NCBI GenBank assembly: GCA_000310025.1
Contig: FN649752.1
Coordinates: forward strand, 2,342,766 to 2,406,765
From: Ectocarpus siliculosus
Taxonomy: Eukaryota; Sar; Phaeophyceae; Ectocarpales; Ectocarpaceae
DNA: 64,000 bases
Direction of reading: 5' to 3'
Shown: positions 2,871 to 19,543 of the stretch, in pieces
Position numbering within the stretch: position 1 is the stretch's first letter
Layout of the letters: every line of letters starts with the position of its first letter
Made by a program: the position numbers and the translations under genes
Notes under the pieces: generated by a model
The model's database searches: none
Seen by the model: the letters and a program-made list of their open reading frames with translations, nothing else
What the model was told of the DNA's origin: nothing

Positions 2871-4425
2871 CGGTTGTTGAGCTACGCTGCGCAAGGGGCA
2901 TGCGGTGCGGAAGATGGACAGGGCACTGTCCTCAGATGGCTGTAAGGGAGGGGAGGAGAGGGGAGTTTGGCGTGGGTCCCCGTCGACGTTGGTGGCTTGT
3001 CGTAGGACCGGAATCGTGGAAGTGGTCGTACTCCCCCCCCTAGACAGACTTGAAACACAGCGATTGCTCCACGAGTAGGAGAGAGAGTTTGGGAGAGTTC
3101 GAGAGAATTCCGAACCCAAGGAGGGTGGTCTAGGAAACATCTCGTCGAGAGTTCGTTTTCATGGCCGGGGTTGTTTCGTACTGTACACCCTCTGGGCTTT
3201 TTTTCGCTATGTGGCGGCACCAGCACCTTCACAGCGAAGAAAGCATTTTGGTGACATGAGAAATGCGAGCGCGTAGCGCCGCCGTGGAAATCGAGTTTCC
3301 CGCGTCTTTGCCTACCAATCGTCTTAAGCCGATCAATCTCTGAACCTTCCAATACACGCGGTTCGCCCCCCGTTCTTTCCGCGGGCTTTTGTCGACTTTT
3401 TTTTTTTTTGTTCTGTGTCGGCTGTGCCCGGTTTTATCCTCATTGTCGAGAACATGATTTGAATCCTGTTCTGATATCCACGGGTCTCTCACCGGTTTGT
3501 CGCTTGTCCTTGTGCTTCTTTCGGAGGCGTGCGCCCCCATCAGGCCATGCGGGGCAATTGGTGCACATGCCCTCACCGGTCGGTGACGTTGGGGGTGCGG
3601 CTTTTTTCTTGTTAAGATGGCGTGGGTTTGAAATGGAGGTGCTGTAACGCGGCAGTGTAGGTGGTGGTGTTGGTGTGTGTGTCTCAGTACTTGTCTGGCC
3701 TCCAGGATGGTCTCCTTTGTTGCGAGAGTCCAGGGTTGTGCGAGAGAGTTACTCCTCCCCTCTTCCCAACGAAAGGAAAGGCTTCACGGGGCGGTGGAAA
3801 AAAACGCGCGTGGCCGTGGTGCTTGCGGGCGCTTGCGCTGTCAGTCACCGCCGCCAAACATCGAAGAAGCAAAAAACAACTCTTCGGGGTAACATAAAAA
3901 ACCCAAGGTTGGTTTTCTTCCCGCGAGGTTCGATTTTTGTTTTGGTCCTGTTTCGAGCCGCGGAAAGGGTGGGTGCAGCACTGGTCCGGCAAACCCACTT
4001 CGAGTCGTCGCTTTGCCCTCCTGAGGAGGAATGGTGTGTGCGCGCGTGTGCTGAAGGGGGTGGAGGACTTCTCTTTGGCTGCACGGGAACAGACGTGCGG
4101 GACACGTGTAGGCATCGGTCGTGGCGTGGCGTGTCACACATGTCCCGATTTAGCTTGGTTTCAGGGGGCGGCGCGGAGAGCGTGCTGCACGGCCCGCTCT
4201 CGCTGGCGGCACACCCGCGGATCCCCTTGCTTTCTATGTGAAGTTTCGCCCTCCACTATCCCCCCACGTGCAGGGGTCTTGATGCGTTTGCAGCTGGTCG
4301 TGTTTTCTGTTTCTGGCTGTAGAGGCGCGTGGCACTCTTCTATTTAAAATGTGGTGGGTGGAAGGTTGGTTGTGGAGGTCGGCGAAAAGAAGTTGATTCT
4401 CCGTCGGAGAGAGCGAGAGAGAGAC

Positions 4426-4473
<48 letters not shown>

Positions 4474-5392
4474 CGTGGTTTGCTAGGTGCTGTTGCTTCG
4501 ATGAAGACAGTAGCAGCAGTATTCCCCTCTGCCTTTTGGTTGTGGGGTATGCTCGACCGATCGCAAACACCCTTGCTTCTCCCGGCATGTTCCGTTGGCC
4601 GGGGAGAGTGATACCGCCGTCGTCACTACGTACGGGGGATTTTGCGATATGCGCTCACGTGTTCTTCTGCCTTTGTTCCTTTCTCTCTCCCCTTGCGTGT
4701 TTCGCGGGGTATCTGGGGTGGAGAGATGCAACCAGTATTCGTTAGGGGCGCCTCCCCTGTGAATTTGATGGCGCATGCTCTTTCCGTTGTTTCTGCTGTG
4801 TGTGTGTTTGTGTTTTTTTTTTTGCAAAGGCCGGCTGGGTACGGACGGCCAGATGGGGGAGAAGTTGAAAGAATAATAGCCGAAACAGAGGTTAAGAAAA
4901 GAGAGACGCGACGATCGGGCAGCCAGTGCCGTTTTTGACGTTTTCACGCACCATCCTGTGCGATTTGAACCGGCTCTCTGAGTCGCAGCATACGAATCCG
5001 GGACAAACCTTCCGCGGGGGCAGCTTTAGTCTCGCGCACAGGCACGGCCATTTTTTCCTCGTAGCTCCATCTTCAAGCACCATAAGGCTGTGTGGGGAGT
5101 CAACAGCAAGTGGGAAGGAGCTATCTCCCCTTGCGACGGTGCAACATGCGTCACGCCGCAATGAGAGAGAGGGGAGTCTGCCGAGAATCACCGGTCGTTT
5201 TTTTTTCGCACTGTTGTTTTTTTGGGGTGGTTTCCGTGCCTGCACTGCAACGGTCCGGCTCCCAACCGTTCCCGGACGCCTTGCGCGAGGACACGACACA
5301 AGGTAATCCCTTTTACATGCCACGGTTGTGAGCTGGAAACTTTGCGCATACCAACTCCACGTTAAAGCTGAGTCCAACCCCTTTCCAATGAA
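2871..5392. other. Gene-poor region, no supported gene
   Basis: Open frames here overlap on both strands, show no recognisable motifs and lack convincing splice context. The stretch is rich in short homopolymers and in GT- and GA-rich tracts. A basic minus-strand frame at 3229-3576 (115 codons) and a minus-strand frame at 4892-5377 (161 codons) are the longest candidates, but neither matches a family I know. Confidence 0.5.
4404..4470. repeat. (GA)n microsatellite
   Basis: A nearly pure GA dinucleotide tract with a few interruptions in its first 30 bases. It gives artificial RERERE reading frames on the + strand and SLSLSL frames on the other. Confidence 0.95.
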
Positions 5393-6115
5393 ATGAGCGA
5401 AACCGCCTTAAAAACCGGCGTGCGATGCGCCGTGTTGGCATCGGTACAGAGTATTGCAACCGACACGCACACACGGTATGGTGGTCTTGGCAAAGGCACA
5501 ATTAGACTTACCGTAGCCATCGCCAAGCACTTGGCATATGAAGCCTTTTGCAAGAGCAGTTTCGATGACGAAACAGCCTTGCTTCGCCTTAAGGCTTTTC
5601 ACACCAATGGGATCCGGAGACGGGTTACCTTCGAGCTGGCTCGTTTTCTATCCGTACGAACTCGCGATGTTTTCAAACGTCGTGATGACACAGAATACTG
5701 CTTGATCAGTTCCCATCATGACCAGTAGGTTGGGATCTCGGGAGTAGTGCAGATAGAAACGACCAGGATGGCAATGTCGGGAATTCGTTTGGCAGCGATG
5801 AAGGAGGAGGAGAGGGAACGGGAGGAGGACAAGACAGGGACCAAAGCAGCAGTCGAGGAGGGAAAAATGGCGGGGAAGAGAGCGAGAGCTTCGAGCCAGA
5901 TGACTTTCCCCACCACAAACGACGCAGGGCTAGAGAGGAAAAGTCGAGAGGTTGCTGTGAAAATGACCATGAGAACGATGGAGGAGTTGGAAGGAAGGAG
6001 GATGACGGTGAAAGCACTCCAAAATGAACTCGAGTGCAAGGTAGCAGCCTTCGTAGACGTATACAGCGTTTCTCCTGTTGCTACCGTTTCTGTCTTTGAT
6101 CCGGAGAATAGGTGA
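5393..6115 (+). other. Two adjacent ORFs of unknown origin
   Basis: An open frame of 111 codons (5393-5728) has ordinary amino-acid composition with no low complexity. It is followed by overlapping frames to 6115; one of these, open from about 5722 for roughly 100 codons, is Gly/Glu/Asp-rich with a basic KRRRAREEK patch. Base composition here is more even than in the neighbouring genes. The frames could be one ORF broken by a +1 shift, an exon of an unrecognised gene, or part of a decayed element next to the retrotransposon. On the reverse strand a short peptide, AKRIPDI, is shared with the retroelement integrase tail near 7690; I treat this as possibly coincidental. Confidence 0.25.
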
Positions 6116-6765
6116 GTCTCCCCTATGCCGTCCTCTCACGGGGTCCCAGTTAATGGCATTTTGTATTGGTGTAGACACGCGTAGCAATCCCTTAAGACCC
6201 TTCCTTGGTGAAGACTCACTTGTTGATTCATGTCTCTCATTGGACAGCAGTGCATGCTGATTCCTTGCTCTCTGTGGTAGACTGAGCATGTGGGGGCAGA
6301 CCAGCTCCCTCTAACAGGGGCTACCAAGGTCCTGTCCCCTGCTTTATCCTTCAATCGGGAGTTACATCTCCCGCACTTTCCTCTGGGCATTAGCCCGCAC
6401 TTCACTATTACCTACCGTTGGTACTTTGGTACAACTTCAAATCCCAGATCACTAGCCCACCCTGGAGGTCCTCATACGCAGATACGTGAATCTCGGAACT
6501 TGACATATACTTGTCGAATTCCAAATGAGAGTATCGAGGATGCAGAGCTCCAAAATACCACAAGTCACCCCCCCACACCTCTCACTCGATGAGTCGCAAG
6601 ACCATCGTTTGACCTGAAAAAAAGGAAGGTACAGGAAGGAATAAACTGGCACTAACAGAAAGAAAACCAATGGGAGAGCCGCAACAGGCGAATGCTACAT
6701 ATACCATAACAGGTCGGAACCCAAAAGAAAGGGGAAAAGAGGACACGAAAGAAACGAAGAAAATA

Positions 6766-6894
6766 AGCGTCGCCGGAACGACGAAGAGGAACGAACGTCG
6801 TCGGAACGACGAAAAGGAACGTCGTCGGAACGAGAAAAAAAAGGAAAGTCGTCGGAACGACGGAAAAAAGAACGTCGTCGAAACGACGAAAAGG
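6766..6894. repeat. Five tandem palindromic units, GTCGT-ACGAC
   Basis: Five units of about 24-28 bp, each with a GTCGTCGGAACGAC core (a small inverted repeat GTCGT/ACGAC) followed by an A/G-rich spacer such as GAAAAGGAAC. They sit inside a strongly T-poor, A-rich stretch running from about 6600 to 7250. That stretch adjoins the 3' end of the minus-strand retroelement and might belong to its terminal region, though I could not find a matching copy at the other end. Confidence 0.7.
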
Positions 6895-7333
6895 CCTGTA
6901 TCGACAAAACGATAAGATACACCAAACAATCACCACGGTAGCGTGGGAGCGACAACAAAGGTCACGAAACACCTACAGTCCGCAAACTCTAAGACGTAGA
7001 GACAATAATACACCGAAAACGTACAAAAGCACCACAACGTACCACAAAGAAAGGTCGGAAACCAAACGTTTCGGAAGCGACGCAAAGAAGAAAAGGGGTC
7101 GTGCCGCCAAACAATAGCTGACAAAACCTCGGCAGGGAACAGAGAAAGCTCGACCTGGCGGACTATTGAAGCCAAAAGAAAGAAAACGAGAAAACGAAAA
7201 CAATGCTATATTGTAAGAGCAACAGAAGGCAAAAGCAACCAAGCACGCCATCTTAATGGGAGCGCACGAAGTCATCGGGCAACGAGTCCTTCACTACGCC
7301 GCCACGCGACATGTCGATGTTGCGAAGAATAAC

Positions 7334-8983
7334 CTAGAAAAGGGCGCTGCCGCTGTGAGCTTGGAGGCACCAGGATCCGGAGACGGCGGTTTCGCCGGTG
7401 GAGTAGCGAACATCAGGAAGGGCGAGCTTGACAGGTCCAGGGTCGTTCAAGAAGCGGACGACGTACAATAAGTCGGACGGTAGAGGTGGTCCAGAAAATC
7501 TTACCCAACCACCAAAATCCATCGCGTGCTTTGTACCAGAAGAAGGCGCCAACAGGTAGCGGAGTATTGACGAAGCGACGGTCCCATGTTGAACGAGGGA
7601 CGAGCGAGTAGCCCGAGGGCAAAGCTCGTTCTTCTTTACCGCGCGCCACTTCCCGGGTGGCCGCACCAATGCGCATCGCCCGATATCGGGGATTCGTTTG
7701 GCGGTGTTGATCAGGCTGTGGTTCCCTCGAGCATTTGGATGCTCAAGAACTGTCATCAGCACGCGCGGCAGGCGGCTCATATGCACCTCGTTGGTCGCCA
7801 AACCAGTAGCGGCACTAACCGAAGTGTTGTAGGCAACCAAACCTGCGGCAGATGAATGCCCCAATCATCTTGCCTCTCGTTGACGACCATAGCCAGCATC
7901 TGAGCCATCGTGTGATTGACACGCTCCACGCCCCCATTGCCGTTGGGATGGTAAGAGCTGGTAGCCACTTTGCGAATAGCAAGGCGGGCGCACACACCTG
8001 CGACAGTTTAGAACAAAACTGAGAGCCGTTATCAGACAAGAGACTCAACGGGCAACCCCACAAAGTGATATGCCGGTTGACAAGGATGTCAGCGGTGCCT
8101 TCGGCGGTGAAGTCTGCAGCCGTAACCGCGTACATACCAACACGGCGGCTGAAACGATCGGTGAAATGCAGAATATATGTGTTTCCACGCGGTGTCAACG
8201 GGAGGAGACCGAAAAATCGACGCTCACCGACACACCAGGGCCCGAAGGCAGTGGAAGGCACAAAGTAGGCCATCGAGGCGTCTGACGAGACGACTTGAGG
8301 GCTTGGCATCGCAAACAATGCCGCACCCACCACTTTGTACAAATACGCATGCCAACCCACCAATAGAAGTATTAAGGTTCCAGCATGCTAAGCGTGCGGG
8401 CTGCACCGAGGTGGCAGGACGCATCAGCGTGACAAGCTTGCATGATCCATGGATGCAAGAGCATGGGAACATAAATCCGAATGGGTTCATCGTTGAGGAG
8501 GCGAGCAGCACGCCCGCCAGGACGTGTGGTCGCAGACGATGGGAGTGCTGTTTGCTTGCGAACAAGCAAGATCAAGCCATCATCATCAACATGTAGCCGG
8601 CCTTTGTTAGACAGGTCGCGAATCTCCGTTAGAGAACGTCGACGAGCGGACGGAAGATGATCTATGAAATCCGAAGGGAGGGCCGAAGGCCGACCCAGAA
8701 GGATGAAACGAAGTGCTGCATCACACACAGGTTCGTTACGCTGCTCGCGAGCCCAATCAGCATGCGAGAAACGTGTGACAGACGCCCTGAAGGCTAAATC
8801 CGCCGAAGAACGTAAAGCCGCCTCGATAAAAGAGGGGACCGATTCTTGGAATTGTCGACTGCAACCCATCCGAAGGTAGAGCACCAGTGGAGATCGAAGG
8901 CAAATTCGCACGAGCGGTTGATACCAAACGCGGCAAGGACTCCGAAGAGTCAGGGGCAGCAGATGACTGCAGAGTCGGAGCAA
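7334..8983 (-). pseudogene. Retroelement integrase region, frameshifted
   Basis: The N-terminal part (8983-8372) has the His/Cys zinc-binding pattern around HADASCHLGAA, with a CLRC-like pair following in another frame. The catalytic core follows: FTDRFSRRVGMY around 8165 and LLSDNGSQFCSKL around 8035 supply the two aspartates of the DDE triad, and HPNGNGGVERVNHTMAQ at about 7950 supplies the glutamate region in a shifted frame. The C-terminal segment (7864-7334) resembles the integrase tail, with a basic KWRAVKKNEL patch and a possible chromodomain-like end. At least two frame changes are needed to read through it. In an active element it would insert the cDNA into host DNA. Confidence 0.85.
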
Positions 8984-9626
8984 CCGAACTTACAGGAGGC
9001 GTCGGAGACGCAGAATCCACTCCATGAGCTCGAGGCGCGGAGGGATCCGGGGATAGACCGCCAATACCAGTAGTCGAAACTAAACTGGACAGAACTGGGG
9101 TCGTCGAGAACGTTGGGGACGCCGTCGGAGACCGTCGAGACGGCCGCGGCGAAGCGGAGATCCGTGTGGAAGGCAGGGGAGGCAAGTCGTCAGAAAACCC
9201 ATAATTGACCGGTGGGAGTGGCGTACCTGCCACAACCGCCGTACGGCGAGGAGTCCGCGTGGAAATTACTTGAGTAGGGTCGAGGGTCAGTCGTGGCGTG
9301 GCGGTCGGCGAGACGGCCGGCGGAGACTCGGGATCGAAAGCTATAACATCCTCCACAGGCGGGTGCAGTGAGCCACGCCAAATAGGGGGGAGGCCGCTGA
9401 CGCAGTCTTGAAGGAAGCAACTCGCGGAGCTTCTTGGATGGCCAGGGGGCGATGTTCCAGATGCCAGGTGGAGACGAAAGGCCTGACGGCGAAAGACGTG
9501 GACCATGCCGACGGAAGTCGACGAAGTCAGCCGTCGAGGGGGCAAGCCCACCCAAGACCGAAGTCGGGGAAGTTGGAGCGAGCCCACCCAAGCCAACACC
9601 CACGGCGCGATGGCCAGAAGGCGCAA
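8984..9626 (-). other. Pro/Ser/Thr-rich spacer between RNase H and integrase
   Basis: About 200 codons of this minus-strand frame are dominated by Pro, Ser, Thr and Ala (for example SPTASPTFSTTPVLSS). They lie between the end of RNase H and the integrase zinc-binding region. Usual Ty3/gypsy pol genes have only a short linker here. The frame is open for 289 codons and joins the integrase frame without a break, so it looks like a real part of the ancestral polyprotein rather than antisense noise. Confidence 0.55.
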
Positions 9627-9689
9627 GAACGGATGAAGAACACGCTCTCCTCATCGTCATCTGGTGCGACCAGATCGGTCACATTCCGC

Positions 9690-11162
9690 CGCATCGATCG
9701 GAAGGCGAGAGAGGAAATCAGCGTTGCCATTCGCGGAACCCTTGTGATACTCGAGAGTGAAATTAAGGCGGTGAGACATTCTAGCCAACGCTGAACGCGG
9801 GCATTGTTCTCCCCCACCTTGGCAAAATGCTCAAGAGATTTGTGGTTGGTAAAAATCCGAAGTTTCGTACCCACAAGTAACCGCGAAGTCGTTTGATACA
9901 CCACACGATGCTACCCGCCTCGAGGTCGAGGGGAGTCCAATGACGTTCGGAGTCCAAAGTAGCTCGGCTGATGAAAACGATGGGCCGGATGGAGCCATCC
10001 GGCTGTTCTGTTCTTGTTCGAAAGTCCTACCGAACCCATCGCGACTAGCATCTCACAGCAGTAGCGGCGAAAAGGTCGCGAGCCGTCCGAAACGGTACCC
10101 CAATCCGGATAAACCAAGACAGGAGGGTTGGTCAACTCAGACAGCAGGACGCGAACAGCTTGCTCCATGGAAGGGGTGAAGACGAACGTCGCCTGTTTCT
10201 TGAGGAGAGCTTTCAGAAGCCGAATACGTGTAGCCATGTTGGGGGAGGAACTTGAGATAGTAGCTATGGCCGCCGAGAAGAGAACTGAATTGTTTGACAT
10301 CCTTAGGCATAGGCATTTTGGTGAGGGCCGCAACCTTGGCACCATTTGGCCTAACTCCGTCGGGAGAGATGGTGTGGGCGAGGAAACCCGCTTCTGTAGT
10401 ACCGATGGTGGCCTTCGGTGGGGTGAGTTTCAAATTGCGTGACCGCAAACGTTCAAACAGAGCTCGCATGGTATCAACATGAGAAGCAGAAGTGTCGTCA
10501 AAAACGATCAAATCATCCAAGTACGATGCAACACCGCGGAGATTTTTGATGACTTCGTTGACGACCTTGCAAAACCACCCAGGCGCAGCAGAACTGCCTT
10601 GAGGCATCGTCAACCACTCAAAAAGCCCAGAAGACGTCACGAATGCCGTCAAAGGGATTGTATCATGGTGAACCGTGATTTGGTGGAACGGACATTTCAC
10701 GTCAAAAAAGGAATAAATTCGCCCTTTCAACAACTTGTCCAAAGTTTCATCAACTCGAGGAATCGGAAGCTGGCTCGAAGCACAAAGCTTTTTGAGCTTG
10801 CGATAGTTGAAAGTGATGCGAACATCATCAGATTTCTTCGGTACGACTACCAAAGGACTCGAGTAGCGCGAGGTCAAACGTTGGATCAGACCAGCCGCAA
10901 GATACTGATCAAGGATCGCGTCAACTTGTTTCGCCACCGGGGGGTTAACGCGGTATGGGCGAGACGTGACGGGTGCACTGCCTGGAGGAACTGTAAGCTT
11001 GAAAGGAAAAAGCGAACAAGATCCAAAATCGGTCGGGGAACTCGAGAAGATATCATGATACTCGCACAAGACGTTACCAAGCGCAGTGGTGACTTCATGA
11101 GTCCAACCCGGACCGTGGAGATCAACAGAAATCTCACGGAGATGGCAGGGGAGCGATCCCAC
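9690..11162 (-). pseudogene. Retroelement reverse transcriptase and RNase H
   Basis: The 341-codon frame 11162-10137 contains the reverse transcriptase core: the SRYSSPLVVVPKK entry motif, SFFDVKCPFHQI with the first catalytic aspartate region, LTMPQGSSAAP, and the catalytic YLDD box at 10523-10512. RNase H follows in three mixed frames: LVYPDW, a SDGS near 10080, an ERHWTPLDLEAG region near 9920, then TNHKSLEHF and RVQRWLE, and FTLEYHKGSANGNADFLSRL near 9740. Together these are diagnostic of Ty3/gypsy pol. Several one-base frame changes interrupt RNase H, and the RT frame is itself entered by a shift from the upstream frame around 11160. Confidence 0.92.
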
Positions 11163-11799
11163 ACGCGGGGAATACCCTGACGCTGTTCAGGCGTCAATCG
11201 CTCGAGAAGAGCTGGTGAAGTCGTTGAAGGAGAAGGCCCAGCGGAACCGGGGCCGTCGTTGTCGTTTGATGACGACGTGGGGCGCTCGTGGAGATTATAC
11301 ACGAAGGGGTCAGCAATGGGATGCATGGCAGACGAATCAATGCCATCTGTCGAAACAGGACCCTGAACCCAATCGCCCGAAGGCGCGGTGGAAGCGTGAG
11401 CCGTAGTTTGAAGCCCGTCGCTCAAACTGTGGCACGACACAGCGCTAAGAGGCACTTTGACCAGGAGAGCCGAAGCTGCACCCAAAAAGTCACCTGGGTC
11501 GAGAGAAGAGTTGCCCGCGAGCGGGATTCGTTGACAACCATTTTGCACGAAATGCTCCTCGGAAGAAAACATGGCGCATTGCGGAAGCATGTCCACTCCA
11601 TAGTTACCGACGAGAGCTGGGGAGCCATCGTTGCGCACCAAATTAACCGGAATGAGGCTATGCTCGGGGTGAAGTTAGACGGAATGTTTCCCGGCATAGC
11701 GAAGTTGGTAGTTACCATCTGTGGAAGGCAAATCGAGACCAAATGCGGTGGCACCGCAACTTTTATGCTGAGCCAGATTAAGCTCGCCAAAACACGGTG

Positions 11800-12200
11800 A
11801 CCAGGGCGTTTCGCACGCAAAGTGCGGTAAGAGCGGTCGCTAAACCGCATCCAACTGTCTCTCCCGAGAAGCACGTCATGATGCATGACACCATCGGGAA
11901 CAAAGTACCACCAAACAGCGAGAGAGGAAGTAGGAAGACTCTTACGGAAGAACTGGACACTCAAACGGACAATAGTCGAAGTTTGAAGCGGCGCAGATTT
12001 GCCGAAACCATCCCAACAACGAGGTTGGTTTGTTTCTTTGATAACGATGAAGCAGCCGAAGCCGCTTTCATTGAATCCCACGTGTAAGCACTAATAAAAG
12101 ACTGCGGGGAACCGGTGTCCAAAAGGGCAACACATCCAAATTGAACAGAGGCTGAACCACTGTGAATGAGGATTTTGGTAGCGAAGAATCGTCATCGATG
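11800..12200 (-). pseudogene. Retroelement aspartic protease
   Basis: The minus strand encodes VALLDTGSPQSFIS; the DTGS active site lies at 12119-12108. After a frame change near 12086 comes a beta-rich stretch ending VMHHDVLLGRDSW, typical of the C-terminal half of retropepsin-like proteases (the hydrophobic-G-R/K-D end). The domain would mature the gag-pol polyprotein. The shift between active site and C-terminal half argues that this copy is dead. Confidence 0.85.
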
Positions 12201-12569
12201 GTAACAACGCGACCAACCAAATCCGGACCTTGCTCCAAGAGCGAAGAAGAGGACGAGGATGATGAGGTGCACCCAGGAGACACGGCCCAAACAGCGGTAT
12301 CATGATCCGATGGAACGTTCGGAGCGTATTGCGAAAATGACGCGAATCGTGCGGTCGACGGAGGGCGCGAAGCCGTCCGAAGGCGCTGGTGGGTGGCAGG
12401 ATTAACTTCGTACACCGCGTGATGAAGAGATGACGTCGGAACGTGACCCGTAGTAGACAGAAAAACGGGAGCAGCGCTCGGGGGGCGGGGCATTGCGTCG
12501 TAAAAGACTGCGTACTCGTTGCAGGGCGTTGCCCAACAAATTGAGACCGCGCGACAGAGACGCGAAGCG

Positions 12570-12960
12570 AGCGTCAGGATCATCGGCCTGAAGGCCAATG
12601 TCCCAAATACGGTCGAAGGGGCTGGCTTTTTCAAGGATTTTGTCACCAGATCCGAGGAGATGATCTCGAAACTCGGAGTATTGACTAAATTTTGCGTAGG
12701 AGCCAGTGAGCACGATGGTTTCATGCTCTCGTTCCCAAATAGGTTGGTCGAAACCACGGCCCTCGCGGCCAAACTTCTTGTGTAAGGCAGGGTCGAATAC
12801 TCGCATGATGTTCTGCAAAGCTCGGTGGTCTTCGAAAAGACGAGCCTTGTCCGCAGCAAAAAAAAACTGCTCAGCACACAAATAATACACGACTCCATCG
12901 ACCACAAAAGTCGAAGCAGTCCATTGGGAGAGGGGGGGTTCCAGAAGAAAGCCATGTCAG
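12570..12960 (-). pseudogene. NADAR (YbiA-like) domain within the retroelement
   Basis: On the minus strand the frame reads, in order, AFFW, then after a one-base shift in a G7 run (12932-12938) LSQW, VDGVVYYLCAEQFF, ADKARLFEDHRAL, GREGRGFDQPIWE, LTGSYAKFSQ, LLGSGDKILEKASPFDRIW and DIGL. This is the complete motif series of the NADAR/YbiA/DUF1768 family: the W and CAEQ entry, the AxKA helix, the AKFSQ block and the SPxDxxWxIGL end. Family members bind or process ADP-ribose derivatives, and some remove ADP-ribose from guanine bases. Apart from the homopolymer shift the domain is uninterrupted over about 130 residues, better kept than the pol domains. It lies directly upstream of the protease, so it appears to be part of the element. 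A host gene fragment captured only in this copy is the alternative. Confidence 0.85.
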
Positions 12961-13099
12961 GAGTACAATACTCTGTAAACGGGTCGAAAACAGCCTGAGT
13001 GGCAGGGGCCGAAGCGCCCTGAGTGCGGTCAACCGAAGCTGGGATTGCAGCCGAAGCTACAGCGGGCGGGACGCTCGTATAATGGGTGACGGCATGGAT

Positions 13100-14451
13100 A
13101 TCCATGGGGATGGCCTCAGATACGGCAGAGACCGGCGAAGAATCGGCGACCGAAGTCGAATTGTTCGCAATAATTGGGCCAGCGACACTATGCTGGATGC
13201 GCCCTAATTCTAAACCTGAAGAAACGCCTCATGAGGTGTCATTCAACAAGCCGCTTTCCCTAGGAACGGCCGCCAAGGCCGGGTCAGTAAAACTGAGTCA
13301 AGCGTGGTGCTCCTGGCCATTCCTCCGTGACGAGGTACGCGAGACCTCCGGCTGTTCGGAGGTCACTTCTGGGGCGTCCTCCCGAAGCGGTGGTGTCCAC
13401 ACTGTCGACGTCGGTCGCGGCGTCCTATTAGTAGGCGCCTCTGGGCGAGCGTGCGTCGGAGGACATGGATCGTGTAACGACGACCCACGGTCGAAACGTC
13501 GCGTGGCGGAATCTGATGATGTTCGGCGGTCGGAACCGGGGGAACCAGGCGATTCGAAGCCAAAATAATTTGACCCTGAAACTTGCCGGTGCAAACCAGT
13601 CAAGTTGCTACCGGTGCAACGGCCGAGGGCGGACCCTCAACGGAAGCGAGCACACAAGAATTAATCGTGTCCGAATATTCACCAGAAGCGACCAATTCAG
13701 GCGTTTCCTCATCAATCGTCCAAAGCGTATCACTACAGCCGGTCTTTTGCAGACGACGGGAGGAGCGGACAAGTGGTGTCACGCAAGCGGCACTCGATGG
13801 CCCCGAAGGTCCTACGGGCCTGTTCCCGCGCCTCAAGACAGCACTCGCGTCAGACTGGTTAGTTTCCGACGGAGCATTAATCCAAAGAGGCGAGGGTACA
13901 GGGGTTGCAGAAGGTAAGTGCGATTGTGAAGGTGGGATGAGCGCATGTCGCTGAATACCGACCTGACCGACACTTAAAGAGACAACGTGTGCTGAAGTAT
14001 GGTTGCCAGTGCGAGGCATCGTAATGCCAGAGGCAGCAGAGTGCGTAGGCACCGAAGTGATGTTATCGTTGCATAGGACCGAAGTGCTAGATGCAACAGG
14101 GCACGAAGGGGCAACATATACCGAAGTATTGTTGGTGTTGCGTAAAACCGAAGTGTCAGAGGCAACAGAGTGTGGAGGAACAACGTGTACCGAAGTAGCG
14201 TTGGTGGTGCGAAAAACCGAAGTATTAGAGGCAACAGGGCGTGAAGGAGCAACATGTTCCGAAGTAGTGCTGGTGTTGCGTAACACCGAAGCGTTAGAGG
14301 CAACAGGGCTCGACACGCGCGCGTCTTGTGATGAACGAGGAAGGCCACCATTTTGGAAGTTGTTGACGGGCATTGTGATTGATCGAAACCATGATGCCAG
14401 ACGAAGGGCCGGTGTGGGCGTGTGTTTGGGGTTGACAGAGGGACAGAGCAC
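13100..14451 (-). pseudogene. Gag-like 5' region with tandem peptide repeats
   Basis: A 283-codon minus-strand frame (14451-13600) is Ser/Thr/Val/Pro-rich and has five degenerate copies of a peptide of about 20 residues with the pattern VASNTSVLRNTNNTSVHVAP. Frames at 13603-13298 continue the Pro/Ser-rich composition with Arg-rich patches. I see no CCHC zinc knuckle and no recognisable capsid motif, so assignment to gag rests only on position 5' of NADAR and protease. Confidence 0.45.
14000..14310. repeat. About 60-bp coding tandem repeats
   Basis: Five imperfect copies of a unit of roughly 60 bp with the core GAGGCAACAGNGNGNGNAGGA and ACCGAAGT blocks; they make the peptide repeats of the gag-like frame. 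Divergence falls mostly between the conserved blocks, as in a repeat expanded while still coding. Confidence 0.75.
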
Positions 14452-14686
14452 CAGTGTGGTGGGTGTTGCCCGAGGTTTGTTGCGAAGAGCGAGAGTTACC
14501 CGAAGAACTTTCTATGGCGTGCCCACTGTTGTGCGATTGCGTCTGAGGGTTTTGGGGGGAACTAAATAATACCACCGTCGGAACGTCGATTCCCAGCGTG
14601 GTTTCGACGCTGAGAGGATGAAGAAGAAGGGCGCTGGTGGCGTACACATGTGTTTTCAGCCGCACTGAGACTGACATCTTTTCATT

Positions 14687-14739
14687 GGTCAGCCGGTTAG
14701 CGCGGTCGATGGTAATAATGAAAACACACACACACACAC
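14687..14739 (+). other. tRNA-Ile-like 5' half plus (AC)n
   Basis: GGTCAGCCGGTTAGCGCGG followed by GGTAATAATG resembles the D-arm and anticodon-arm half of an isoleucine tRNA, including the A-box. No B-box follows; an AC dinucleotide tract begins at 14722. It is probably a tRNA fragment or truncated SINE head, not a functional gene. Confidence 0.3.
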
Positions 14740-15879
14740 CCAAACACACATCGCCTATCTCATTGATACTACTACCATAATAACCCAACCCCGACCGAAA
14801 ATTTGCCTATTGCGTCCCTGAATCTGAAACTAGAAAATTATCTTGCTTCGTATGTATGTATGTAACTACCGACCATCACGTCGGAGGAAAACAACGCATA
14901 ACCTTCTCTTGGAGAACGGAGAAGGTTTCTGTATAGTGTACAGGGCGGCGGGAAAAAAATAGGCACGCGAGAATAACAGCAGTCCGCAAAGGAACCAATA
15001 AAACGGGTACAGCTAGGACTATACTGCTGTGCTGTAGATATACTACTGATCACACGTACATCCTCGGCGACACATGAAACAAAATCAATCACTCCACTCG
15101 ACCTACTCATGTAATTATTTTTTTCCACGTGACCATTTGTTTTTGTACCGGGGCAGAGGCTTTGGAGTTTAGTTACACGGGCGAAGCCCGCTAATACATG
15201 TATGCGTGAAACCAATCTGCGGGCCGTACGCTTTCCAAATGCACCTCTCTCTGAACGCTGAATGAACCATTCAATAAAGGAAACGAGACACCATAGCAGA
15301 CTGCAGTACATCATCGAGATACAATTTCCTCTTTACCTCTACCTATAGCCAAGGAAGTTGTGCGAACGAGAGCACATTAGCTGAGAGTGGGGCGTACCCG
15401 CCGCAGCTACACGGGTAATATCTAACGGGTGCAAGCGCCAGATGAACGCGGTGCAATCGATGCCGTTTCGGAGGGATCTTTCGTGGCTCTCTCTGCGGAA
15501 GGACTCTTTTGTCAGAGTGTTTGCACCTCTCCCGCCCTCGTCTATGGACTGTTGCAACATTCTGGGTAGTATGACTGAGGATGCAAAGTGAGCCTGAGCT
15601 TTCGTGAGACAAGCGCAGTAGAATCGCAACAGAAATACTGTTGGATTGAGTATATAGGGGCGTTTGTCGACGAAACGGAACAACGCCGTCCCCGGCGGGT
15701 GTGCGTGAACGATCCCTGCTTTCTCTCTCTCTCTCACGCTCCGCCCCGCGAAGTTAATTTTCTTGGCCCGAGGCAACTATAGAAGAAGGCAGTTCATCAC
15801 CAGTAGAAGCCAACCGCAGTCGACACACCGACAGTAATCAGCAGCACCTACCTGGATCTATTGTCTAGACACGTGAAAG
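14740..15879. other. Intergenic, no supported gene
   Basis: Two minus-strand frames of 158 and 145 codons (14838-15314 and 15339-15776) overlap this region but show no motif and no matching splice partner. The stretch has several short TATGTATG and CT runs and probably holds the promoter of the gene starting at 15880. Confidence 0.5.
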
Positions 15880-18625
15880 ATGCCAAACGAGTCAGCAAGA
15901 TGCAACAACGGCCGCATGCCGAACAACCCTGGGCTCTACCCCAGCCCCAATCCAGCCCCTAGCGCGACCCTTCGTACCATCAATGCTATTTTTACCATGC
16001 CCATGCAGCGAACCAGGAGGCGCCCCCATGAGATGGACGCCAACAACGTCGGCGGTGGTCTGCAACCCCGCCTGGCTGGCCGCCGCGAGATGTTGGCACG
16101 CCCTCCCTCTGGTAGACGAGAAGATGCCATCGTGGCGAAACCGGCGGCGGGAGCCGCAGAGGGGTCAGCACCGGCGTCAACATCAGCGTCAACGAAGCGT
16201 AACTTTGGTTCCACCGGGACAATGTGTCAACAGGAAGGACCTCCGAGGACTAGCAAGAGACAAAAGCAGGACGCCCGTCTGCCGACGGTACCAACACTAG
16301 CACCGCTGGCGCCAACACCAGCATCGGCCCCAGGCCTTGCGAATGACAATCCACCGGTTCCTCCTTTCTCTGGGCCATTGCTACCACCGGTTCGGCAGCA
16401 GCAGCAGCAGCAGCAGCAGCGATTGCCACCATCAGCGTTGCCACCATCAGCGCTGGCGCCACCCCTTGCGAACAACAAACAACTGCTGGCGCCTCTTTCA
16501 TCTATGGCACCGATGCCACCGGCTAGGCAGCAACAGCAGCACCAGAAGCGAGTGCTAACATCCGTGCAAAGGACGGGGGGCCGTGGACTCTCTCGGTACC
16601 AGCCGTTCCGCATCCCTTTCGGTTGCGGAGGACGGGCAATGAGGAGGGGCCTTGCGAGGAAGCGGTGGGAAGAAGGGCACGACACTGAACTTGAAGAGGA
16701 CGGCGTTGAGGAAGGGGTGAAGACCCTTTGGAAGCGGGAAAACGAGAAAGAAGGAGTTGTTTTGGGTGGAAAGCCGACGGTGGGTGGCTGCGAGGTTGAT
16801 GGAAGCTCATCGCGACCGTCCCCGCTCTCCTCCTCGTCGTCTCTTGATGGAACGCAGGTTTGCAGTGCTTCCGATAAGAGCAATCTACCTATGTACAGTA
16901 TCTATTGCACGAAGATAGTACCAGCGTATTGAAAAAAAACTTGGCAGTGTAAAGTACGGTCACATACATAGATTGAACCTCTCACCTAGCACATTCTTTA
17001 GGCAGGTGATGCGTGAGCATGTCAAACAAGGCGATGACCTCGTCGGCGTCTAAGGGTAAACGTTGGGAACAACACTACACAGAAGATGCGGCGCTTCTCC
17101 TTCTCAACTGATATGCTCGATTGATTGCCTCAGAGGCAAAAAAACAATGATACCATGCCCGCACTCGTTTTTCCCTCTCGTTAATTATCCTTTCTGCGCG
17201 TGAAAACGCTAGGGCGGCCGTCCATGCTGGCCGCAGAGCCCATGGTTATCTTCAGTCGGGAGCAGAAAAAAAAAAGGCGGCGAGGAAGCCGCCGCCGGTG
17301 CCGGGAACCGCTTCGAAGTCATCGCAGAGGAATCTATCAATGCCGCGATGCGGGACCAAGAGGTGAAGCGCCGGGTCATGGACGAGGCGCACACGGTGGA
17401 GTCTGGCGCTCGGCACAGGTTAGTCAGGGGGTGGGGCGACACCATGGAAACTTTGCACGACATTCGTCGTTGGGTGTTTTTCCTCAAGAGTGCCGACCCA
17501 CTGGTTTCACTGATGTTGACATCACTGACCCGCCAAACATTATTACACGCAATACCTATCCACTAGCATGACAAACTATGTACCAAGGCCTGCGAAAATC
17601 TCGTCATGAAACTCTTGTCAATTCTAGAGGGGTATCAGCAGGGCCTACTGCAGGCGGCAGTACCGTGGTGTGACGCACATTGTCGGGATCGGCTGAAACA
17701 TGCGTCATTTTGAAACCGAAAACTACGAGAAACGAAGCAGAAACACCGATACAAACATTGTCCGACAACACCAAACAGGCTAGAGATGGCGAAAAGCACC
17801 AAGAACGACATATACGAACGGCTGCAAGGCTGCTGGCAGCGGTGCCTCGAACCCACGAAGCTGGAGCTACACCGGCTGGAGAAAATGTTGGACGACTGCT
17901 CCGACGTCTTGCCCACCGCCGAGGAGAGCGCCAGGAGGGCGAGAGACGTGGCCCGCAGCGCCGAGAACATCTACGCCCTGGTGCGCCACAGCGCGTCCCA
18001 CGCGAAGCAGGCGCACGAGTCCGCCCGAGAGGAAGTCCTCTTCCCCCCGCTACTCTGCGACGACTACGGAGCGCTCTTGAGAGCGCAGCACCGCACCCGG
18101 GAGGCGCTCGCGAAGGCCATCCAATCCGTGAAGAACGCCCGGGGGCAGGTGGAGGGGGCGAGGGCGGCGGTCAAAAACGCGGTGGAGATTGTGGGTGGGT
18201 CTTTTCGTCCTCATGAGTCGTGTCCTCGAGTTGCCACTACGGTTTCGGGGTTTCATGATAGCATTGCTGCTGCTGCTGTTTGTATTGTGGTTGAGGATGA
18301 TGATGGCATAGCCGCAGCGCTAGGCGTGAGAATATGGCTTTCGAGAAGCGCATCGAGCTTGGCTGGAAGTAATAAACTACGTACAGGACAGACGTTTGAT
18401 AATATGTCGTTTATTGTGCACTACCTTTCCCTGCCATTGCGGCAACGATATCATGAGAGACATGTGCGCGCGTCAACCGTACCGCATCACGAGGCCCCGC
18501 GTAAACCACTCGGAAAGAAAGGCCCATATTTCCGACGTATTGCACGAATAACTCTCGCTTGCTGTCGTTGCCTTCACCATTCCGACAAGAAAAAACTACG
18601 GACATCGCTAGTAGGTCATTTCTCT

Positions 18626-18678
<53 letters not shown>

Positions 18679-19543
18679 GTTGCACAACCCCTGACACTTT
18701 GAGCAAACCACCGAACAACCAAACATCGCACGAAAAACAATGACCTGCAGGCGTTGAGCCGTTTAGACGGGCCTTCTTGGCCGACAAAGTCGCCGAGGCC
18801 AAGCGCCGGCACAAGGAGGTCAATACCAACTACGAGGCCCTCGAGGTTGAGCGCAAGCGGGCCGTAAACAAGGAAAAGAAGGCGGCGGCAACGTACAAGG
18901 AGGCCGCGATTCGGGATGGCGCAGCCATGATCGCGTTTCAGGCCGCTCAGCGCCAAACAGCGAGAACCCGCGCTACTTTCAGCCTGCTGACTTGCGGGCG
19001 GGGTGGGAGCAAGCGTGGCGAAGCGGAAAGGTTCCTGGTGCGGGAGGGGGGGGAGGAGGAGGAGGAGGTGGTGGTGAAGGAGGAGGAGGAGGAGGAGGNN
19101 NNNNNNNNNNNNNNNNNNNNNNNNNNNNNNNNNNNNNNNNNNNNNNNNNNNNNNNNNNNNNNNNNNNNNNNNNNNNNNNNNNNNNNNNNNNNNNNNNNGG
19201 CGGCGAGGAGGGGGAGGGGGAGGACGAAGGGTCAGCTGGTACTGCTGCTTATGCGTGTGGTGATGGCGGTGGCGGTGGTGGTGTTGGTGGCGGAATAATT
19301 GGTGGCGACATTGGTGCGCATGCCTTTGTGGGGTCCATGGCAGGAGGGGGAGGGGGCGCAGAATGGGCCGCAGAGAGCGTGGAAGGAGGAGGAGATGCCG
19401 GAGGAGGGGGAGGAAGACAGATAGGTGCCATGGCGAACGTTTCGTCTGTTCTAGGGACGAAGCGCCGGGCTTCGGTGATGGACCAGGCCGAAGGCTTGGG
19501 AGATGTGAGCGCGGAGAGAGCACATTCGGGTCCCAATTTTTAG
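15880..19543 (+). CDS. PolyQ, coiled-coil protein with Gly-rich tail
   Basis: Probable exons: 15880 to about 16858 (ATG start; Pro/Ala-rich with a run of eight Gln near residue 172 and a second Gln/His stretch); 17237-17418; 17779-18194; 18751-19543. Phases agree at each of the last three joins (AG+G, then G+GC), so the ATG at 17786 is internal. The central part (exons 2-4) is highly helical and charged, rich in Ala, Glu, Lys and Arg (for example AEAKRRHKEVNTNYEALEVE), and predicts a long coiled coil, possibly BAR-like. The C-terminus turns acidic (Glu runs) and then Gly-rich, ending in TAG at 19543. A 100-N gap at 19099-19198 falls in the Glu/Gly repeat. I do not recognise the family; a membrane-shaping or scaffold role would be inference. 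Confidence 0.6.
18625..18678. repeat. (TGTC)n microsatellite
   Basis: About thirteen uninterrupted TCTG/TGTC tetranucleotides inside the third intron of the coiled-coil gene. Confidence 0.95.
19099..19198. other. Assembly gap (100 N) in GGAGGA repeat
   Basis: Exactly 100 N, a placeholder length. Both flanks are GGA/GGC repeats within the last exon of the coiled-coil gene, so the missing sequence is probably more Glu/Gly codons. Confidence 0.95.

What the first reader, a model, noticed from the sequence alone, without database searches (positions are those of the whole stretch)
12570..12960. NADAR domain carried by a Ty3/gypsy-like retrotransposon
A full NADAR motif series sits in the element directly upstream of the protease, in the same orientation, and is better preserved than the pol domains. 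NADAR proteins handle ADP-ribose derivatives, and some reverse guanine ADP-ribosylation. A retroelement carrying one suggests either a defence against host ADP-ribosylation of its nucleic acids or a structural use of the fold. I know of no standard Ty3/gypsy architecture with this domain.
Basis: partly seen in the sequence, partly recalled or inferred. Interest (0 to 1): 0.88.

Follow-up and report, generated by a model that had tools for sequence, protein, structure and literature searches.

The report
NADAR enzyme domain in algal retrotransposon
The window holds a decayed copy of a jumping gene from a brown-alga-like genome whose family normally carries a well-kept ADP-ribose-handling enzyme domain; the combination was reported in 2025, and what this adds is a conserved active site and closest kinship to the algae's own stand-alone gene.

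Summary
The NADAR domain is real: window 12480-12976, minus strand, PF08719 E 2.8e-35, upstream of protease, RT, RNase H and integrase of a decayed Ty3/gypsy element. It is no one-off capture: 119 of 139 RT places found in this genome have a scored NADAR upstream on the same strand. The fact is published: Dinatale et al. 2025 (PMC12477816) report a conserved NADAR at the N-terminus of Pol in one of four Ectocarpus Gypsy lineages. In the family, nine ligand-site residues are kept in 30 of 30 best-scoring copies and pooled dN/dS is 0.21. Element NADARs group with stand-alone brown-algal NADAR genes (97/93), with bacteria as sister; the direction of transfer is unresolved. NADAR and RT trees agree on the deepest groups but conflict among three subfamilies. 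Best mechanism (inferred): an active ADP-ribosyl hydrolase made in the Gag-Pol product and packaged, as betaretroviral dUTPase is, to clean the element's nucleic acids. Substrate untested.

The parts
7343..14643 (-). decayed Ty3/gypsy element, 5'-truncated in late gag, with a deletion near 7715; the 3' limit is at least 7343 (held relatives end near there)
   Evidence: blastn against held copies L050, L046, L033, L031, L036, L048
14051..14326 (-). four 69-nt tandem repeats in the linker before NADAR (23-residue repeats)
12480..12976 (-). NADAR domain, catalytic Glu replaced by Lys and R93 by His; one frame shift near its start
   Evidence: PF08719 E 2.8e-35; residues; frame shift
11842..12125 (-). 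aspartic protease region (LLDTGSPQSF ... LLGRDSWMRF)
   Evidence: motifs placed; no Pfam protease match
10137..11186 (-). reverse transcriptase
   Evidence: PF00078 E 3.9e-22
9781..10026 (-). RNase H part
   Evidence: PF17917 E 1e-9
7777..8434 (-). integrase: H2C2-like motif, core and following part, in three frames
   Evidence: rve E 1.3e-7 just under its cut-off, rve_3 weak; motifs

Best explanation
The window carries a decayed member of a multi-subfamily Ty3/gypsy lineage in which a YbiA-family NADAR domain is a regular part of Pol, placed between Gag and protease. Shown: the domain occurs across the lineage, is under purifying selection and keeps its ligand site, and its deepest groups agree with those of RT. 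Inferred: it is an active ADP-ribosyl (N-glycosyl) hydrolase made only in the Gag-Pol product (Gag and Pol share a frame, split by one UGA), so that it is packaged with protease, RT and integrase and removes ADP-ribose, most plausibly from guanine, from the element's RNA, primer or cDNA around reverse transcription, much as the dUTPase N-terminal of protease in betaretroviruses keeps uracil out of the DNA. My odds: identity and lineage-wide presence 0.97; active enzyme 0.75; acts on the element's own nucleic acid 0.4.
For: 119 of 139 RT places with a scored NADAR upstream; nine ligand residues kept in 30 of 30 best-scoring own copies, and eight of the nine kept in at least 46 of 54 further element proteins; pooled dN/dS 0.21, P 1.3e-7; model pLDDT 97.5 matching the ADP-ribose-bound P. 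nicotianae NADAR 8bau, TM 0.90, whose enzyme removes guanine-linked ADP-ribose (PMC11543638, passages); deepest RT and NADAR groups agree; in-frame UGA in 7 of 7 junctions found; dUTPase sits N-terminal of protease in betaretroviruses (PMC1224870, passages).
Against: No activity, expression or packaging was tested. R93 is Cys in 38 of the 54 further proteins and D86 is not kept. Within three subfamilies the RT and NADAR trees conflict. No DarT-like transferase was found and PARP matches are four short exon pieces, so no guanine ADP-ribosylating writer is known in this host. Substitution pairs and the 30 copies come from the best-scoring end of the list, which leans towards conservation.
Confidence: 0.5

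Rival explanations
1. The NADAR acts on soluble NAD-derived compounds (cyclic ADP-ribose, ADP-ribose phosphates of RNA repair and the like), blunting a host NAD-based response or tidying after RNA repair, and not on nucleic acid.
For: Iyer and Aravind's group propose this for phage NADARs (PMC9503650, passages); kept ligand site fits any ADP-ribose compound.
Against: The same paper argues that NADAR and macro domains embedded in RNA-virus polyproteins, the closer parallel, target ADP-ribose on macromolecules.
Confidence: 0.25
2. The fold is used structurally or for RNA or protein binding in the particle, with no need for catalysis.
For: [quoted passage not shown]
Against: Catalytic Glu kept in 30 of 30 own and 53 of 54 further element proteins; in SNA-3 mutation of those residues in domains 2 and 3 harms function.
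Confidence: 0.15
3. On origin: the cellular brown-algal NADAR gene descends from the element (domestication), and the element got its NADAR from bacteria, as Dinatale et al. suggest.
For: The sister of the element-plus-algal clade is 19 bacterial or unnamed stand-alone NADARs plus Chrysoparadoxa (92/74), and in the best tree the algal genes nest inside the elements, fork support only 80/67.
Against: A tree holding the elements as one clade is not rejected (p-AU 0.372), so transfer from host to element fits too. The algal proteins share an N-terminal extension across Ectocarpus, Pylaiella and Scytosiphon, and in this genome the gene is matched in pieces 1.4 kb apart, probably exons.
Confidence: 0.4
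4. A single capture of a host or bacterial NADAR by this copy, or a chance match.
For: None found.
Against: E 2.8e-35; 119 of 139 RT places with NADAR upstream.
Confidence: 0.01

Closest known systems
NADAR-bearing Gypsy lineage of Ectocarpus sp. 7 (for example Gypsy-12_Ec32), Dinatale et al. 2025, PMC12477816
   Same: [quoted passage not shown] the NADAR lineage is one among several Gypsy lineages of the genome
   Different: The window copy is decayed and has lost the catalytic Glu. The published consensus was not available to compare; whether this genome is Ectocarpus is not established. A C-terminal chromodomain was not found by Pfam in P0122
Phytophthora nicotianae NADAR (8bau) and E. coli YbiA (2b3w)
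   Same: Fold (TM 0.90 and 0.78) and, for 8bau, nine ligand-site residues
   Different: Cellular stand-alone proteins; D86 of 8bau is not kept in the elements
Stand-alone brown-algal NADAR (P0004, P0010, P0014, P0016; one copy in this genome at C24)
   Same: One clade with the element NADARs, 97/93
   Different: Cellular gene with an N-terminal extension, no Pol; direction of transfer unresolved
Betaretroviral dUTPase N-terminal of protease
   Same: Works like: an extra nucleotide- or nucleic-acid-cleaning enzyme in the same place of the polyprotein (PMC1224870, passages)
   Different: Unrelated enzyme; a parallel only
NADAR in RNA-virus polyproteins and in bivalve proteins (oyster Tx1 LINE ORF1 per Dinatale et al.)
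   Same: NADAR inside a replication polyprotein (Foldseek matches) or in retroelement ORF1
   Different: Bivalve NADARs from Mercenaria, Mizuhopecten and Argopecten form their own distant clade (100/99); RNA viruses were not put in the tree

Membership tests
NADAR superfamily | PF08719 match over its cut-off | tested here: met
   122.4 bits against 35.1
NADAR superfamily | YbiA-like fold | tested here: met
   Model of the domain of sister copy L046, pLDDT 97.5; 8bau TM 0.90, YbiA 0.78; the window copy itself was not modelled
NADAR superfamily, YbiA family | Catalytic Glu (E125 of P. nicotianae NADAR) | tested here: not met
   Window copy has Lys; the family does keep it, in 30 of 30 best-scoring own copies and 53 of 54 further element proteins
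NADAR superfamily | Hydrolysis of guanine-linked ADP-ribose or N-glycosidase activity | not testable with these tools
   Needs a bench assay
Ty3/gypsy (Metaviridae) | Pol order protease, RT, RNase H, integrase | tested here: met
Ty3/gypsy (Metaviridae) | Flanking LTRs in this copy | tested here: not met
   No direct repeat of 60 bases or more other than the 69-nt tandem at window 3000-19000; the copy is 5'-truncated. A 269-bp identical pair flanks relative L037
Ty3/gypsy (Metaviridae) | RT placed in a Gypsy clade by a tree with reference elements | not tested
   The RT tree held only relatives
NADAR-bearing Ectocarpus Gypsy lineage (Dinatale et al. [quoted passage not shown]
   Window and 119 of 139 RT places
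NADAR-bearing Ectocarpus Gypsy lineage (Dinatale et al. 2025) | C-terminal chromodomain on integrase | tested here: inconclusive
   Pfam scan of the related P0122 shows none up to E 0.1; the window 3' end was not defined
NADAR-bearing Ectocarpus Gypsy lineage (Dinatale et al. 2025) | Sequence match to the published consensus | not testable with these tools
DarTG1 toxin-antitoxin | A DarT transferase alongside the NADAR | tested here: not met
   0 candidates for PF14487 in the whole genome, six frames without regard to introns

The most novel reading that the evidence does not exclude
A brown-algal retrotransposon lineage took a cellular NADAR from its host (or gave it one) and has kept it as a packaged eraser of ADP-ribose on its nucleic acids, a retroelement counterpart of viral macrodomains and of retroviral dUTPase. 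That would imply that these algae ADP-ribosylate retroelement nucleic acids as a defence not described so far in the papers I searched.
Probability: 0.25. Interest if true: 0.8.

Novelty: already known. Interest (0 to 1): 0.42.

Why it matters
The architecture was published in 2025 in one paragraph without a functional test. If the domain is an active eraser of nucleic-acid ADP-ribosylation, it points to an undescribed conflict between host and element in brown algae and gives an assayable role to a eukaryotic NADAR outside toxin-antitoxin systems. The conserved ligand site, the purifying selection and the kinship with the algal cellular gene make that directly testable and refine the published suggestion of a bacterial origin.

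Tried and rejected
Chance match: rejected. One-off capture: rejected. A NADAR-less branch of this RT lineage: of the 14 unpaired RT places in the first list, 6 hold frame-broken or partial NADAR (L033, L034, L036, L038, L041, L044), L031 begins at a contig end, and L032, L035, L037, L040 and L042 lose similarity to sister copies short of the NADAR; L039 and L043 show no NADAR. The RT of L039 groups with P0129, which has NADAR, and that of L043 with NADAR-bearing L041, so I read both as decayed copies; that is inference. The 6 unpaired places added by the second RT search were not examined. Three 35-residue rows, tail pieces of RTs already listed, were dropped before counting. 17 of 150 NADAR places have neither a scored RT nor a scored RNase H nearby; I could not fetch them, so they may be fragments or genes. 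Other Gypsy-type RNase H places: 76 of 150 have no scored NADAR within 6 kb upstream, among them the 33 best-scoring; the NADAR list holds 150 of 230 candidates, and some of the 76 are truncated members of this lineage. dN/dS between subfamilies could not be had because synonymous sites are saturated, and several comparisons downstream of NADAR are spoilt by frame shifts and were not used. Papers: NADAR with Gypsy gives one relevant paper of 2; DUF1768 with retrotransposon none; the lists for NADAR with retrotransposon (20 of 104 listed), 'NADAR domain' (15 of 15) and YbiA with related words (12 of 12,765 listed) show no other report by title and start of abstract. A search for ADP-ribosylation, PARP and retrotransposon (10 of 115 listed) showed no title on ADP-ribosylation of retroelement nucleic acids. 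Naming the organism was not possible from the handles; kinship to Ectocarpus rests on protein hits.

Full report
WHAT IS THERE. The window is C27:2342766-2406765 of a 189.5-Mb genome in 492 contigs. On its minus strand lies a decayed Ty3/gypsy element. Pfam finds NADAR (E 2.8e-35), reverse transcriptase (3.9e-22), RNase H (1e-9) and an integrase core match just under its cut-off; the protease is seen by motif only. Order on the minus strand: remnant of late gag, linker with four 69-nt repeats, NADAR, protease, RT, RNase H, integrase. The Pol motifs fall in three frames, and similarity to sister copies stops at 14643 in late gag. No LTR pair was found for this copy.

NADAR is present and extends a little beyond the stated coordinates (12480-12976). 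It is not intact: mapped on P. nicotianae NADAR (8bau; chain number = published number + 2, worked out), the window copy has Lys for E125 and His for R93. It is not better kept than Pol: 79% identity to the nearest subfamily against 84-88% for RT.

A FAMILY TRAIT. The PF08719 search scored 150 of 230 candidates in the genome, all 150 over the cut-off, and 26 of the 150 rows list an open frame of 2000 aa or more. Two RT searches give 139 places; 119 have a scored NADAR upstream on the same strand within 8 kb. In the first list 102 of 116 are paired, and 100 of the 102 gaps lie between 1.2 and 1.7 kb. Of 150 scored RNase H places 74 have a scored NADAR upstream within 6 kb, and the 33 best-scoring have none, which fits the published 'one of four lineages'. 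All lists are capped, so counts are lower bounds.

PRIOR REPORT. Dinatale et al. 2025 (PMC12477816; outline with abstract, section 5 part 1 of 2, and find passages; [quoted passage not shown] The core of the finding is therefore already known.

ACTIVE SITE AND SELECTION. E43, K50, K75, R79, W89, R93, E125, D130 and W133 are kept in 30 of 30 own copies (the 30 best-scoring of 150, many near-identical). In 54 further element proteins (those of P0121-P0240 with a protease or RT motif in the same protein): E43 46 of 54 (6 gapped, 2 changed), K50 53, K75 52, R79 52, W89 54, R93 13 (Cys in 38), E125 53, D130 52, W133 51. D86 is not kept in either set. 8 of the 9 columns are among the 48 of 166 that are at least 95% conserved, P 2e-4, columns not being independent (all). 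Five NADAR pairs, one per subfamily, give 28 synonymous and 20 replacement changes, pooled dN/dS 0.21, P 1.3e-7 against neutrality; the eight within-subfamily pairs computed range from 0 to 0.46, and the window copy against two intact relatives gives 0.19 and 0.20. I chose the pairs, from high-scoring copies. The domain of an open sister copy folds with pLDDT 97.5 and matches 8bau (TM 0.90) and YbiA (0.78).

PHYLOGENY. In a 77-row NADAR tree 38 element or element-like rows (five of them short unnamed ENA proteins without Pol) and five stand-alone NADARs (four from named brown algae: two Ectocarpus, Pylaiella, Scytosiphon; one EukProt record without organism) form one clade (97/93). Its sister is 19 bacterial or unnamed stand-alone rows plus Chrysoparadoxa (92/74). 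The stand-alone algal genes nest among the elements with weak support (80/67), and holding the elements together is not rejected (p-AU 0.372). The bacterial sample comes from the best 120 listed of 7403 hits. The genome itself has such a stand-alone gene: a piece at C24:2126818-2127066, 81% identical to the Ectocarpus sp. 13 protein and the only match at E 1e-8 to its N-terminal stretch, and another at C24:2125206-2125394, 89% identical to the E. fasciculatus protein.

RT AGAINST NADAR. RT rows fall into the same deepest groups as NADAR rows: the ENA proteins; P0190 with L041, L042 and L043 (88/84 for RT, 90/60 for the corresponding NADAR group); and the remaining own and CCAP 1310/34 rows. 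Against this, the two trees conflict inside the third group: the RT of L044, whose remaining 45 NADAR residues are of the L005 type, joins L039 and P0129 (100/98), while L005-type NADAR joins the window's subfamily (97/78). Recombination between subfamilies or a weak NADAR signal could explain it. RT DNA of some subfamilies was not held. One acquisition before these lineages split remains the simplest reading.

SPREAD. The protein search with the NADAR part of a NADAR-to-RT piece (127 hits, best 120 listed) shows NADAR-plus-RT proteins of Ectocarpus sp. CCAP 1310/34 and, from ENA or NCBI contigs without a name, P0141, P0180, P0190, P0197, P0220, P0225, P0226 and P0228, at 51-57% NADAR identity. 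Their organisms are unknown, so spread beyond brown algae is not shown.

EXPRESSION LOGIC. In 7 of 7 copies in which the junction was found (11 searched; L036, L038, L041 and L044 gave no match) gag and pol share a frame and are split by one UGA followed by CUC. This suggests stop readthrough and NADAR only in a minor Gag-Pol product; inference. The paper does not hold the words readthrough or stop codon in its main text. The place between Gag and protease is that of dUTPase in betaretroviruses (PMC1224870, passages).

MECHANISM. NADARs tested so far, the P. nicotianae one included, hydrolyse guanine-linked ADP-ribose (PMC11543638 and PMC11125620, passages). RNA viruses embed NADAR or macro domains in polyproteins, and these are proposed to undo host ADP-ribosylation (PMC9503650, passages). 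I favour a packaged eraser; use on soluble compounds or as a structural part remains open. No writer is known here: no DarT match, four PARP-like exon matches.

Noticed in passing
G000:C24:2125206-2127066 (-), outside the window: A stand-alone NADAR gene of the host, matched in pieces 1.4 kb apart (probably exons), with an N-terminal Cys/His-rich stretch shared with proteins of Ectocarpus, Pylaiella and Scytosiphon.
   Followed up: partly
L033, L034, L046-L050, gag-pol junction: Gag and Pol in one frame with a single UGA followed by CUC in 7 of 7 junctions found, suggesting stop readthrough.
   Followed up: partly
window 14051-14326: Four 69-nt tandem repeats (23 residues each) in the Pol linker before NADAR.
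   Followed up: no
P0122 C-terminus and L044 3' part: A stretch WYK..DGLWWLGKI beyond integrase looks to me like a small chromatin-reader-type barrel; Pfam names nothing there up to E 0.1. The likeness is from recall.
   Followed up: no
P0128 (Mercenaria), P0206 (Mizuhopecten), P0207 (Argopecten): Bivalve proteins with one or two NADAR domains behind a low-complexity N-terminus, a distant separate clade; perhaps the LINE ORF1 type mentioned by Dinatale et al.
   Followed up: partly
ENA element clade (P0135-P0141, P0197, P0220 and others): The ADP-ribose-binding Arg (R93) is Cys in 38 of 54 element proteins while the catalytic Glu stays, hinting at a shifted ligand or substrate.
   Followed up: no
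L044 against L005-type copies: RT and NADAR disagree on subfamily kinship, perhaps recombination between subfamilies.
   Followed up: no
window about 18950-19230: A run of undetermined bases inside low-complexity frames, and simple CTGT-type repeats near 18600.
   Followed up: no
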